From positions 21,414-85,413 of the forward strand of contig CAJIYW010000002.1 of assembly GCA_905181765.1 (NCBI GenBank): a DNA stretch of 64,000 nucleotides. The letters run 5' to 3'. Shown here piece after piece: positions 58,089-62,540 of this stretch (within the stretch, counting starts at the first letter, position 1; each line of letters starts with the position of its first letter). The notes under the pieces were generated by a model, which saw only the letters and a list, made by a program, of their open reading frames with translations, had not been told where the DNA came from and made no database searches. The translations under genes were made by a program, and so were the position numbers. The DNA comes from Flavobacteriales bacterium UBA6772 (lineage in GTDB: Bacteria; Bacteroidota; Bacteroidia; Flavobacteriales; Flavobacteriaceae).

Positions 58089-58139
58089 GACCCGTAAACG
58101 GGAACTTTGTGCTCCATATAACCAGTTGTGGTTAATACC
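58057..58139 (+). repeat. candidate attI-like site at the 3' end of the recombinase gene
   Basis: Inverted repeat GAGAACAAAAGTTCC / GGGAACTTTGTGCTC around CCCGTAAACGGG, then core GTTGTGGTTA (58126..58135) at the first cassette boundary. Confidence 0.5.
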
Positions 58140-58156
58140 GAAAACCCAGAAACCGA

Positions 58157-58951
58157 GTGAATAAAACAGTATTTGAAATTACCAAAATGGATTGTCCTTC
58201 AGAGGAAAATCTCATCCGAATGAAATTGGACGGAATTTCAAGTATTGCGAATTTGGACTTTGACATTACTAATCGAAAATTGACGGTTTTTCACAGCGGA
58301 GAAATTGACCAAATCGAAAAGTCCGTTATCGAACTGAATTTAGGCGGAAAAAAAATCTCGACTGAACAAACCGACCAAACGGAATTTAAAGAAAACGCAA
58401 ACCAAAAAAAGCTACTTTGGTCTGTACTTGCAATAAATTTTACCTTTTTCATAATCGAAATGACAACAGGAATTATCTCAAAATCAATGGGACTTGTTGC
58501 AGATAGTTTAGATATGCTTGCCGACAGTTTTGTTTACGGAATTAGTTTGTTTGCGGTTGGCGGAACTTTGATTAAGAAAAAGCGGATTGCGAAACTTGCT
58601 GGATATTTTCAAATCACACTTGCGATTATCGGATTTGTGGAAGTTTTAAGGAGGTTTTTCGGAGACGAGAAACTTCCGAATTTTTCGACAATGATTATCG
58701 TTTCGATTTTTGCACTTATCGCAAACGGAATTTGTCTTTACATTTTACAAAAGTCAAAAAGTAAAGAAGAAGCTCATATGAAAGCAAGTATGATTTTCAC
58801 TTCTAATGACGTGATTATAAATTTGGGAGTAATAATCGCAGGAATTTTAGTAAATTGGTTAAGTTCAAATAAACCAGATTTGATTATCGGAACAATCGTT
58901 TTTATTTTGGTAATTCAAGGTGCATTTAGAATATTGAAATTAAGTAAATAA
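58157..58951 (+). CDS. cation diffusion facilitator family transporter with N-terminal HMA-like domain (cassette 1)
   Basis: FEITKMDCPSEENLIRMKLDGI...; IIEMTTGIISKSMGLVADSLDMLADSFVYGISL (CDF signature). GTG start. Confidence 0.85.
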   Translation: MNKTVFEITKMDCPSEENLIRMKLDGISSIANLDFDITNRKLTVFHSGEIDQIEKSVIELNLGGKKISTEQTDQTEFKENANQKKLLWSVLAINFTFFIIEMTTGIISKSMGLVADSLDMLADSFVYGISLFAVGGTLIKKKRIAKLAGYFQITLAIIGFVEVLRRFFGDEKLPNFSTMIIVSIFALIANGICLYILQKSKSKEEAHMKASMIFTSNDVIINLGVIIAGILVNWLSSNKPDLIIGTIVFILVIQGAFRILKLSK

Positions 58952-58956
58952 AATAA

Positions 58957-59093
58957 GTACTAACCACAACAACGTGTATAATTCATTCCTAGTTATAGCC
59001 TACTTACGAAAGTCCTCTCGGACTTTCTATCTGTGATTTATTTGCTAACTTTAGTGCTTAAACCACGCAACGAAATCATACACAAAACCGTTG
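58957..59093 (+). repeat. attC-like site 1
   Basis: CAAC-AAC-GTGTATAATTCATT ... GAAAGTCC-TCTC-GGACTTTC ... CGAAATCATACAC-AAAACC-GTTG. Confidence 0.75.
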
Positions 59094-59112
59094 TACCCAA
59101 GCATACATTAAA

Positions 59113-59684
59113 TGAATATACTTGCAACTAGATGGTGAAATAGAAAGCTGAGAAAGAAATTGTATTTCAGACCTATTACAATTGGAAGATTTTGATGATT
59201 GCATAAATTTATTCGACGGAAAACATGTAGCAAAATGCTTAGGAATGGACTCAAATCTTGCTGGAAAAAGCAATGTGTGATTAATATGGATTCGAGATGA
59301 AACTGTTAACTTGGAGACGCAAAACGATTTCGGTGTAATGAATGTTTTAATCAGATAAACTGACAATTCTATTAATAGGTCTATGCGGAGTACTTATTCA
59401 CTCGATTCCAAATGTTGAACGTTTGGAGCTTGGATATTCTATTCGTCCTAAATATTGGCACAAAGGAGCATGCATCTGAATCTGCTATTAAATGTAAGTC
59501 AATTCTGCATTTGAAAGATAATCGATCTGATTCTTTAAGATCAATGGCTCACTGTTGAAATTATACTGGTGCTGAAAAAGTTGCTTTAAAGAAATGGAAC
59601 GTCAGTCATTTTGGAACAGATTCAATAGACTCTTATGAAGGATCATCCTGTGAACATTATTTCGGAATTTATAAAGACAAGTAA
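59113..59684 (+). pseudogene. GNAT family N-acetyltransferase remnant (cassette 2)
   Basis: Pieces in different frames: LRKKLYFRPITIGRF; EDFDDCINLFDGKHVAKCLGMDSNLAGKSNV*; LCGVLIHSIPNVERLELGYSIRPKYWHKGA; ASESAIKCKSILHLKDN; GAEKVALKKWNVSHFGTDSIDSYEGSSCEHYFGIYKDK*. Confidence 0.75.
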
Positions 59685-59709
59685 TTAATAGATGGAAGAG
59701 ATAAAAAGC

Positions 59710-59843
59710 CACTGGACAACACCGTATATAATTTATTGCTAGTTCTAGCCTACTTACGAAAGTCCTCGCGGACTTTCTTGGTCGGTAATTATTTACTAAA
59801 TTAGTTGCTTGAAACACGCAACAAACCATATACAACAACGTTG
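59710..59843 (+). repeat. attC-like site 2
   Basis: CAAC-ACC-GTATATAATTTATTGC ... GAAAGTCC-TCGC-GGACTTTC ... GCAACAAACCATATAC-AACAAC-GTTG. Confidence 0.78.
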
Positions 59844-59864
59844 GCTTCAATACAATGAAATACT

Positions 59865-61818
59865 ATGAAAAAATCAACTTTATTATCAAACCTGTTTCTT
59901 TTGTTATCAACAATAATTTTTGCACAAACTAATGTTTCTGGTGTTATTACTTCAGATTCTACTTGGAGCTTGCTAACAGCCCTTATATTTTAACCGGAAG
60001 CGTTTTAGTGCCCGATGGAGTTACTTTAACTATTGAAGCCGGGGTTACGGTAAAATTTAATTCAGGACTTTATATTAAAAATGAAGGAGTTATTACAGCT
60101 GTTGGGACTAGTAGCAATAAGATTACTTTTGAATCTAGTTCAGTATCTCCTGCAAAATCTGACTGGAGTGGAATAAGAATACGTCCAACAGGTGGCTCTG
60201 CCATTGATGGAAGCCAAAATTATTCCTCAGGTTCTCAATTTAAATATGTATTATTCAAGCACGCTGATATAGGTTTATACTTTATGATGCTGGTTTACAT
60301 GTTTCTTATACTGAATTTGATACAAATAATTAGAAGTTTGAAATCAGAAAAACTGATGGGGTTGTAATTGATAATTCAACTTTACTGAAATACAGCTGGA
60401 ATTTGGTCTGAATATGAAGACTTATTCTCCCAGATGATACTACGGGAAATATTTCTAATACATTTATTAAAAATAGTAATTTTTCAGCAAACTAATTATG
60501 GAATAGACTTGATTATGAATCAAAGAGATTTTGAAAATTTAAATATTACTACAAATATGATCTAAGACAATAATATTGGTATTGATTTTGGTGGTGGTGG
60601 TTATGGACTCAGAGTTCATAGTGTTTTAATAGTGAAAATATAGTTTATAACAAGTCTGGATGGTCATGGTCAAATTTAGGACAGAGTTTATGGATCTGGA
60701 ACGAACTGCTGATAGATTATCCTTTAGAATGTCATAAAAATATTATTGTTAAACAATCTGGTGTTTAGGAATGTTGTGGAATATCTCCAGGTGTTAAATT
60801 TAAAATTCATAAAATATATTAATACCCAAGTAAAGCTGATGTCAATAGTTATTCCCAATTGGCTCTCCTATTTTACAGGTGAACATCTAAAATGATTTGA
60901 TAACAAATTTAATAGTTTCAAATGGAACATGCTTAATTTTGGAAGTTCTTCAGCTCTATCATGCAATAAATACTTTCTATAATACTTTATAGGCAATCCT
61001 TCTAGACAATATATTCTCTATATTGAATATGGAACAGGACATGTTTTTATAATAATAATTTTTACCTCAAGTTAACAGCTTATTTTTTAAAAATCAAACG
61101 TCAATTCTATTAATGCAGAAAACAATTACTGGGGGACATTAACTGAATCAGAAATTCAAGCAGCGATTTATGATTATTCATGATGATTTTGATTTAGGAG
61201 CGTTGACTACTCACCTTTTTCAACTGCTCTAAACACTACAGCTCCAATTTCTCCACCATCAAATGTGACTAAATCTGTCTCAGGTTCTGATGTGGTATTA
61301 AATTGGTCAGCTAATGGAGAATCAGATATTGCAGGATATAAATTATATTATGGATCTCCTACGGGATATTCTTATAGCACTACTGTAGATTTAGGAAATG
61401 TAACAACTTATACAGTTACTGGTGGAGATATAGCTACTGAATATGCTATAACTGCTTATGACTCAAGTTTAGATGGAACAGATGATATGGTAGATGGAAA
61501 TGAGAGTTGGTTTTCTGTTTCTAGTGAGAATACATCTTCATTATCATTAAATGACTTAATTGATTTAAAACACTCAAAGGTTTATCCAAACCCTGCTAAT
61601 ATCGAACTAAATATTGAACTAAGTAATAATTTAACATTTATAAAAGGAGATTGGTGGTTGTTGAGAACAACTTTAAGATATTCACCAAATTTAAACATTG
61701 AATATCTGAATAAAAATTTAAGCCTTCAACATTTAGAATTTAATTTTATTCAGCTTGTTGTGTACCCACAAAGATTAAGTAAGTATAAGAATTATAGTAG
61801 CTAACAATGGCTATAATT
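59865..61818 (+). pseudogene. secreted right-handed beta-helix/FnIII-like protein with T9SS C-terminal sorting domain (cassette 3), heavily decayed
   Basis: MKKSTLLSNLFLLLSTIIFAQTNVSGVITSDSTW, then frameshift to ELANSPYILTGSVLVPDGVTLTIEAGVTVKFNSG; later DVVLNWSANGESDIAGYKLYYG; KVYPNPANIELNIELSNN; ends in another frame as IRIIVANNGYN*. Confidence 0.75.
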
Positions 61819-61990
61819 AATACGGGTTTTGGTGCTTAACCCAAAGTTTAGAGCTTTTAACCAAGTCCGCCAAATCTTTTGATTTGGCTTTATAAAGAAA
61901 AAGATAAAACAAAATAAAAAGTTTTGGCTAAGTGCTTAATCGGAAATTAATTACTTTTAATTCCCGTACTAACCATAGCCGTAGCAATTG
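61799..61990 (+). repeat. attC-like site 3
   Basis: AGCTAAC-AAT-GGCTATAATTAATACGGG ... GCCAAATC-TTTT-GATTTGGC ... CCCGTACTAACCATAGCC-GTAGCA-ATTG. Confidence 0.72.
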
Positions 61991-62009
61991 TGTTTAATTA
62001 ACGATAAGT

Positions 62010-62483
62010 ATGAACAAAGAAATAAACAATGATAATCCTGGAGTCAAAATACCTCCTCCAATAATCTTTATTGGATTTGGATTATTTGGGGGTTTAATAA
62101 ATTATTTAAAGCCGTTAACAATTACAGGTCCTTCCTGGCTCGTATATTTGGGCGTATTAATTTTAATTGGATCATTCCTTGGGTTTGGCTATATGATCAA
62201 TTTTTATAAAAAGAATGAGACTGAAATAGAGCCAACCAAAACTACCTTTAAAATAATTACATCTGGTCTATATAGACACTCTAGAAACCCTGTATATATA
62301 ATATTATGTGCAGGTCCGGTTGGTTTAGGGTTTATTTTCATGACTTATTGGGCCATTTTTGCATTCATCCCTGCACTAATAGTCATATACTTTACTGCCG
62401 TTAAAAAAGAAGAACAATACCTTGAAAAAAAGTTCGGGCAAGAATATTTAGACTATAAAAAGAAAGTCAGAAGATGGATTTAA
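62010..62483 (+). CDS. isoprenylcysteine carboxylmethyltransferase-family membrane protein (cassette 4)
   Basis: TSGLYRHSRNPVYIILCAGPVGLGF ... EEQYLEKKFGQEYLDYKKKVRRW. Confidence 0.88.
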   Translation: MNKEINNDNPGVKIPPPIIFIGFGLFGGLINYLKPLTITGPSWLVYLGVLILIGSFLGFGYMINFYKKNETEIEPTKTTFKIITSGLYRHSRNPVYIILCAGPVGLGFIFMTYWAIFAFIPALIVIYFTAVKKEEQYLEKKFGQEYLDYKKKVRRWI

Positions 62484-62489
62484 AAAACT

Positions 62490-62540
62490 AATCACAACTA
62501 AGGCTAAACTGCATTAAAACGAAGTTTAGCCGAAACGTTG
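62490..62540 (+). repeat. attC-like site 4 (short form)
   Basis: AATCACAAC-TAA-GGCTAAACT-gcattaaaacga-AGTTTAGCC-GAAAC-GTTGG; perfect 9 bp stem. Confidence 0.72.

What the first reader, a model, noticed from the sequence alone, without database searches (positions are those of the whole stretch)
58126..62498. Each cassette's two ends are complementary to each other, as expected for circular cassettes with crossover at G/TT
Cassette 1 starts GTTGTGGTTAATAC (58126) and ends GTACTAACCACAAC (58957..58970): 13 of 14 positions complementary. Cassette 3 starts GTTGGCTTCAATA (59840), and the reverse complement of its end is GTTAGCTACTATA (10 of 13). Cassette 4 starts ATTGTGTTTAATT (61987), and the reverse complement of its end is GTTGTGATTAGTT (10 of 13). 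Cassette 2 is weaker (GTTGT shared only), consistent with its decay. The sequences differ between cassettes but match within each cassette. In integrons a cassette's 5' end completes its own attC only when circular, which predicts exactly this pattern.
Basis: seen in the sequence. Interest (0 to 1): 0.85.

Follow-up and report, generated by a model that had tools for sequence, protein, structure and literature searches.

The report
Integron-like cassette arrays with unusual integrase
Each gene unit in this marine bacterium's array has two ends that match each other, as expected if it moves as a small circle, and the same kind of array, run by a different enzyme from that of known integrons, occurs across most of the flavobacterial family.

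Summary
In four complete-chromosome arrays not used to define the pattern, 251 of 284 cassettes (88%) have ends that match perfectly at the six bases after GTT; ends of different cassettes do so in 3%. Window cassette 1 recurs in at least ten other genera, with homology running from G/TT to G/TT. Canonical integrons of the same phylum show the same pattern (86% against 1%). So the complementarity is ordinary for integron cassettes, and it shows that these arrays work like integrons.

The surprise is the platform. The adjacent integrase is an Xer/IntI-like tyrosine recombinase without the IntI-specific domain that defines integron integrases (absent in 35 of 35 relatives, present in 19 of 19 canonical IntIs). 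It groups outside the IntI clade and carries an extra N-terminal domain. The attC-like sites lack the one-base bulge in L'' found in all 56 canonical sites scanned, and fold better on the bottom strand through G·T wobbles. A conserved attI-like site follows the integrase; arrays reach about 60-70 kb. Sites occur in 109 of 121 Flavobacteriaceae genera sampled, the integrase in 76. No description was found in the paper library searched. Recombination itself is inferred, not shown.

The parts
56934..58088 (+). Tyrosine recombinase (384 aa), the presumed cassette integrase; N-terminal extension of about 90 aa; no IntI-specific insert
   Evidence: TIGR02249 211 bits against cut-off 265, split in two stretches; aligns to IntI4 2a3v with about 50 residues skipped; 33 aa against 75 aa in the IntI insert region
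58068..58127 (+). attI-like site: TTCC..TTATCCGGAA (3' end of the integrase gene) ... TATAAC-N2-GTT; insertion point after G58125
   Evidence: TRTAAC-N2/3-GTT within 260 nt of the integrase end in 70 of 81 loci against 17 of 2166 control windows; sequence diverges after GTT
58126..59090 (+). Cassette 1 (CDF-family cation efflux gene 58157-58951); ends GTTGTGGTTAATAC / GTACTAACCACAAC
   Evidence: 10 of 11 free positions complementary; same unit in at least 10 other genera with edges at both G/TT points; PF01545
58964..59096 (+). attC-like site 1 (R'' 58964-58970, R' 59090-59096)
   Evidence: covariance model R1, 116.9 bits, E 8e-26; it is one of the 59 seeds of R1
59091..59840 (+). Cassette 2, decayed (no intact long ORF on the + strand), ends weakly complementary
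   Evidence: 5 of 11 positions, P 0.18; ORF list
59714..59846 (+). attC-like site 2
   Evidence: R1 117.6 bits, E 6e-26; 90% identical to site 1 over 63 nt
59841..61987 (+). Cassette 3, broken reading frames
   Evidence: 7 of 11 positions complementary; ORF list
61799..61993 (+). attC-like site 3 (195 nt, R' degenerated to ATT)
   Evidence: R1 28.6 bits, E 2e-4
61988..62537 (+). Cassette 4 (methyltransferase, PEMT/ICMT-like, 62010-62483)
   Evidence: 8 of 11 positions complementary; PF04191
62492..62543 (+). attC-like site 4, short form (52 nt)
   Evidence: R1 26.1 bits, E 6.5e-4
62538..64000 (+). Probable fifth cassette, running off the end of the contig; starts GTTGGCAGTAATT; reading frames include an HchA-like/DJ-1-PfpI protein
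   Evidence: starts at the R' of site 4; NF003168 341 bits, PF01965; the window ends where the contig ends

Best explanation
This is an integron-type gene-cassette platform of Flavobacteriaceae. The tyrosine recombinase at 56934-58088 inserts circular cassettes at the attI-like site at its 3' end, crossing over at G/TT (58125/58126). Each cassette is bounded by G/TT and ends in an attC-like hairpin whose 3' R' box is completed by the start of whichever cassette follows. When a cassette is cut out and circularised, its own start returns to the R' position, so its two ends pair in a 9-13 bp stem. Selection for a fully paired R stem in the circular, single-stranded (bottom-strand) substrate keeps the two ends of each cassette matched although the sequence differs between cassettes. 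Shown by sequence: the matched ends, the G/TT boundaries, the attI-like insertion point, site orientation, bottom-strand stem bias, absence of the IntI insert, and movement between genera. Inferred: that this integrase is the enzyme, that circles exist, and that the bottom strand is the substrate.
For: Held-out end complementarity 88% against 3%; same in first cassettes next to attI and in second-subfamily arrays. Canonical IntI integrons of the phylum give 86% against 1%. Sites lie downstream of and on the strand of the integrase: 0.53/kb against 0.013-0.026/kb in controls, and 95/0, 52/0, 63/0 and 68/0 by strand in four arrays. Conserved attI-like site with divergence after GTT. Cassette 1 in other genera at 87-91% identity from G/TT to G/TT; homology edges between arrays about 20-fold enriched at G/TT. 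Bottom strand folds more stably in 138 of 149 sites; A.C on the top strand and no G.T at L-stem positions 6 and 11 and R-stem position 10. Every integrase-positive genome in a 121-genus sample has the sites (76 of 76, against 33 of 45 without).
Against: No recombination assay, reads or circular junctions. The integrase lacks the insert reported as necessary for integron integrase activity (Messier and Roy 2001, as cited in PMC9668308 and PMC2426708). Genomes without a detected integrase often still carry sites (33 of 45), so another recombinase could act on them. Only 8% of inter-array homology edges fall within 3 nt of a G/TT. Cassettes 2 and 3 of the window are decayed. The host genome is a 70% complete assembly.
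Confidence: 0.87

Rival explanations
1. The array is a relict or passenger array moved by some other recombinase (a canonical IntI elsewhere, XerC/XerD, or an enzyme delivered by mobile elements), and the neighbouring integrase is unrelated to it.
For: 33 of 45 genomes without a detected integrase still carry sites. In E. coli, IntI1 can recombine an attC from Polaribacter phage P12002L (PMC9892861), a phage that carries sites of this family.
Against: The attI-like site is fixed to this integrase's 3' end in 70 of 81 loci, and arrays start there on the same strand. Two integrase subfamilies each sit at the head of such arrays. Canonical IntI above the cut-off appears in only one genome of the class among those sampled.
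Confidence: 0.08
2. The matched ends are terminal inverted repeats of small transposon-like or non-autonomous elements, each ending in its own repeat.
For: The ends form 13-14 bp inverted repeats around each gene body, and in about 15 places the cassette 1 body continues with a different attC interior.
Against: The repeat differs from cassette to cassette (120 distinct 7-mers in 284), so it cannot be a transposase recognition sequence. Cassettes are head to tail in one orientation. Only GTT/AAC is constant, as in canonical integrons.
Confidence: 0.02
3. The integrase is simply an IntI that lost the extra domain, so this is an ordinary integron with a trimmed enzyme (a rival for origin, not for how it works).
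For: TIGR02249 is its best NCBIfam match. XerA and IntI4 are its nearest solved relatives. The deepest forks of the tree are not resolved.
Against: The window's clade is monophyletic at 100/100 and lies outside a 100/100 clade that holds all canonical IntIs used. The second subfamily lacks the insert too. Both carry a related N-terminal domain that most IntIs lack.
Confidence: 0.2

Closest known systems
Chromosomal (sedentary) integrons with IntI, such as those found here in other classes of the phylum (L141-L160) and the Vibrio superintegrons
   Same: Integrase gene next to attI; one-orientation array of short cassettes; G/TT boundary; R''-L''-L'-R' hairpin with spacers of 3 and 6-7 nt; matched ends within each cassette; arrays of tens of cassettes.
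   Different: Integrase lacks the IntI-specific domain (33 against 75 aa) and has an extra N-terminal domain; attC lacks the one-base bulge in L''; stem asymmetry is made by bottom-strand G.T wobbles; integrase and array point the same way; R stem reaches position 13.
Archaeal XerA / archaeal Xer-like recombinase (5hxy, 4a8e; NF040815)
   Same: Best solved relative by sequence and by fold; tyrosine-recombinase catalytic domain; no IntI insert (alignment).
   Different: From general knowledge XerA acts on a single dif-like duplex site; here there is an attI plus an array of hairpin sites. NF040815 208.7 bits is below its cut-off of 220.
CALIN elements and attC sites of Polaribacter phage P12002L (PMC9892861)
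   Same: The phage carries sites found by model R1, including 62-65 nt short forms. The paper reports that one P12002L attC was recombined by IntI1, with recombinants from the bottom strand and none from the top.
   Different: No integrase in the phage. The paper's two assayed sites could not be matched to exact coordinates here.

Membership tests
Integron (IntI platform) | Integrase with the IntI-specific additional domain | tested here: not met
   33-34 aa in 35 of 35 flavobacterial integrases against 75 aa in 19 of 19 IntIs; TIGR02249 below cut-off and split
Integron (IntI platform) | attI site next to the integrase with cassettes inserted at G/TT | tested here: met
   70 of 81 loci; divergence after GTT
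Integron (IntI platform) | Array of same-orientation cassettes each ending in an attC (R''-L''-L'-R', GTT/AAC) | tested here: met
Integron (IntI platform) | Cassette start completes its own attC only when circular | tested here: met
   88% within against 3% between cassettes and for in-array neighbours; sequence evidence only
Integron (IntI platform) | Extrahelical base in L'' of attC | tested here: not met
   Same stem scan on both sets: canonical 56 of 56 bulged; Flavobacteriaceae 35 unbulged, 2 bulged
Integron (IntI platform) | Recombination of the folded bottom strand by the integrase | not testable with these tools
   Only indirect: bottom strand more stable in 138 of 149 sites
XerA-type archaeal recombinase | NF040815 match above cut-off | tested here: not met
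   208.7 against 220 bits
HARP domain (PF07443) in the N-terminal extension | Match above Pfam gathering score | tested here: inconclusive
   Only family matched by more than one N-terminus: 3 of 24 members, best E 4e-5, 23.5 bits against cut-off 25; no HARP chain found in the PDB sequence search

The most novel reading that the evidence does not exclude
A second, independently recruited kind of integron. A tyrosine-recombinase lineage separate from IntI took up folded-strand attC recombination without the IntI additional domain and without the extrahelical base that domain reads. It may use an N-terminal HARP-like domain, of a kind known elsewhere to bind single/double-strand DNA junctions, to recognise the folded site. 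It then spread through most genera of Flavobacteriaceae.
Probability: 0.4. Interest if true: 0.93.

Novelty: new variant of a known kind. Interest (0 to 1): 0.82.

Why it matters
Integron surveys define an integron by the IntI-specific domain. The large IntegronFinder 2 survey reported only one complete integron in Bacteroidetes proper (Salinibacter) and treated the gaps in distribution as a puzzle (PMC9024848). If this reading is right, one of the commonest families of marine bacteria has had large cassette-capturing platforms that those tools would miss. The missing protein domain and the missing attC bulge would be a matched pair, useful for learning how the recombinase recognises a folded strand. 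The matched ends also give a simple annotation rule: a true cassette boundary pairs with its own other end and not with its neighbour, which helps find cassettes, and fused or decayed ones, in any integron.

Tried and rejected
Rfam at gathering score found nothing in the window, and there are no tRNAs. A first attC scan without the G-C closing pair was too loose. Single-sequence folding of the N-terminal 84 residues gave a poor model and was not used. The PDB profile search of the N-terminal domain found only chance matches. In-frame stops reported for second-subfamily integrases were a worry, but in the inspected examples they are the ordinary terminal stop. Testing homology edges at G/TT over all array pairs gave enrichment but only modest percentages, so the cleaner cassette 1 search was relied on. 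A slip of mine placed cassette 3's end at 61812; it is 61805 and was corrected. Searches of the paper library for Flavobacteriaceae or Polaribacter integrons, or for integrases lacking the extra domain, found no earlier description. Preprints and most subscription papers are not held.
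Full report
What was checked. The four quoted end pairs are in the sequence; cassette 1's GTT starts one base earlier than stated (58125). Over the 11 positions after GTT the four cassettes match themselves at 10, 5, 7 and 8 positions and each other at 3.8 on average. The true pairing ranks first of 24, and none of 100,000 random sets of four reached the sum. Cassette 2 taken alone is at chance level.

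From 80 loci that encode relatives of the neighbouring integrase, a mechanical scan (AAC, 3 nt, 8-bp stem, 5-7 nt, GTT) found 165 sites downstream of the integrase on its own strand. That is 0.53/kb, against 0.013-0.026/kb upstream or on the other strand. Ends of 114 cassettes matched themselves at 7.89 of 13 positions against 5.46 expected under permutation within loci (sd 0.20, maximum of 2000 permutations 6.21). Four arrays on complete chromosomes or large contigs, not used to derive the pattern, were then fetched. A profile of 59 sites found 95, 52, 63 and 68 sites there, all on the integrase strand. Among 284 cassettes, 251 match perfectly at the six positions after GTT. Pairs from different cassettes do so in 3.2%, and neighbouring ends as they sit in the array in 3.4%. 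The same holds for first cassettes next to attI (39 of 45) and for arrays of a second integrase subfamily (28 of 37).

Is this special? No. Integrons with a bona fide IntI (above the TIGR02249 cut-off) from other classes of the same phylum were scanned for attC with a bulged L''. Of 51 cassettes, 86% match perfectly at the same six positions within a cassette and 1% between cassettes, and the match reaches positions 9-10. So matched ends are a general feature of integron cassettes. Their presence shows that the flavobacterial arrays follow the same logic: the R' box of an attC in the array is lent by the next cassette, and only the circle has the matching one.

Boundaries and movement. Cassette 1 was searched, with flanks, in 301 Flavobacteriaceae genomes. 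By hand count of the listing, 13 places in at least ten genera other than the host's carry it at 87-91% identity, with the homology starting at or within nine bases of the G at 58125 and ending within a few bases of the GTT at 59090. About fifteen more places start there but end earlier, many of them near R'' or shortly past it: the same gene body with a different attC interior. Between fetched arrays, homology edges within 3 nt of a G/TT are about 20 times more frequent than for random points, though still only 8% of edges. The 70 of 81 loci that show TRTAAC-N2/3-GTT shortly after the integrase (17 of 2166 control windows) share sequence up to that GTT and diverge after it. This is an attI-like insertion point. 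The conserved TTATCCGGAA further left overlaps the 3' end of the integrase gene, so part of that conservation is coding.

The sites fold as single strands, with a strand preference. Ten of twelve consensus pairs of the central stem show changes on both sides. In the L stem, positions 6 and 11 are A.C on the top strand in 66% and 58% of sites, with no G.T. In the circular R stem, position 10 is A.C in 86% of the well-matched first-set cassettes, again without G.T, and in 199 of 263 held-out ones. These are T.G wobbles on the bottom strand. The bottom strand is the more stable one in 138 of 149 sites (mean difference 2.35 kcal/mol with DNA parameters). This is what is expected if the bottom strand is the substrate, as in known integrons (PMC2727003 and PMC9892861 describe bottom-strand recombination), but the device differs. 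Scanned in the same way for stems with or without a one-base bulge, canonical arrays give 56 of 56 sites bulged in L'', and the flavobacterial arrays 35 unbulged and 2 bulged.

The integrase. It matches TIGR02249 (integron integrase) best among NCBIfam models, but below cut-off and in two pieces. The gap is the IntI-specific insert. Between residues 262 and 294 of the window protein, 25 of 25 close relatives and 10 of 10 of a second subfamily have 33-34 residues, where 19 of 19 IntIs have 75. In VchIntIA the I2 helix of that insert contacts the second extrahelical base, which is the L'' bulge (PMC3053210), so the absent domain and the absent bulge fit each other. In a tree of 65 proteins the window's clade is monophyletic (100/100) and lies outside the IntI clade (100/100), which includes Myxococcota, Desulfobacterota and Calditrichota members; the deepest forks are unresolved. 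Both flavobacterial subfamilies carry an N-terminal extension of about 90-118 residues. In the AlphaFold model this is a beta-beta-alpha-beta-beta-alpha-beta domain with block pLDDT of 80-91 over the first 70 residues. Three of 24 N-termini match Pfam HARP below its cut-off (best E 4e-5): a lead, not an assignment. The nearest solved relatives are archaeal XerA and VchIntI4.

How common. In one genome from each of 121 flavobacterial genera, the integrase (E up to 1e-50, both subfamilies) is found in 76 and the sites (model R1) in 109; all 76 integrase-positive genomes have sites, and 33 of 45 negative ones do. Outside the family the sites are sparser (43 of 149 genomes of the class, two of them of the host's own genus, mostly 1-5 matches). 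On complete chromosomes the arrays extend about 45-70 kb downstream of the integrase. Many draft contigs end shortly after the integrase, which would be expected of arrays full of near-identical sites.

Mechanism, with the status of each step. Shown by sequence: matched ends, G/TT boundaries, attI-like site, orientation, bottom-strand bias, movement of cassette 1 between genera. Inferred from known integrons: excision as a circle by attC x attC, insertion by attI x attC, and the bottom strand as substrate. Not shown: that this integrase does it. A Polaribacter phage (P12002L) carries sites of this family, and one of its attC sites was recombined by IntI1 in E. coli in published work (PMC9892861).

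Known or new. The complementarity itself is known integron behaviour. A family-wide integron platform run by an integrase without the IntI domain was not found in the papers searched. The large survey of complete genomes reports a single complete integron in Bacteroidetes proper (Salinibacter; PMC9024848). The finding is filed as a new variant: it works like an integron, but two defining tests (IntI domain, L'' bulge) are not met.

Noticed in passing
host genome G000 contig C1 304154-318200 (L095): A second array of at least ten sites headed by only the last ~39 codons of the integrase plus the attI-like site (91% identical to window 57977-58136): a duplicated platform with a truncated integrase. 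A third group of sites lies on contig C9, 2.5-11 kb.
   Followed up: partly
window 58125-58971 compared with about 15 places: The cassette 1 gene body with its R'' box occurs joined to different attC interiors, as if attC interiors are exchanged while the matched ends stay with the body. Not explained by crossover at R' alone.
   Followed up: no
L161-L170: A second integrase subfamily (36-38% identity), also without the IntI insert, has a different attI-like site (short inverted repeat followed by GTT) but, where the downstream was fetched (L161-L164, L167), arrays of the same attC family.
   Followed up: partly
integrase residues 1-76 (window 56934-57161): Conserved N-terminal domain resembling HARP (F-Y ... 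WS-T ... WY pattern), below Pfam's cut-off; it could bind DNA junctions.
   Followed up: partly
L120 (Polaribacter phage P12002L) 30906-39713 and 14499-14628: Ten matches to this attC family in a lytic phage, several flanking methyltransferase or hypothetical genes: phages as possible carriers of flavobacterial cassettes.
   Followed up: partly
L016, L018, L019, L022, L030, L043, L047, L052, L053, L077: Near-identical attC interiors (GTATAACCGCAATTACGGCGGATTCGACTACGTCCGAATCC...) recur across several genera, so site subtypes are shared horizontally.
   Followed up: no
window 62538-64000: The probable fifth cassette seems to hold more than one gene (a broken or frame-shifted regulator-like region, then an HchA-like protein) and runs to the contig end.
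   Followed up: no
121-genus survey: Eleven of the twelve genomes without any site are 1.3-2.6 Mb, so loss of the system seems to go with small genomes.
   Followed up: no
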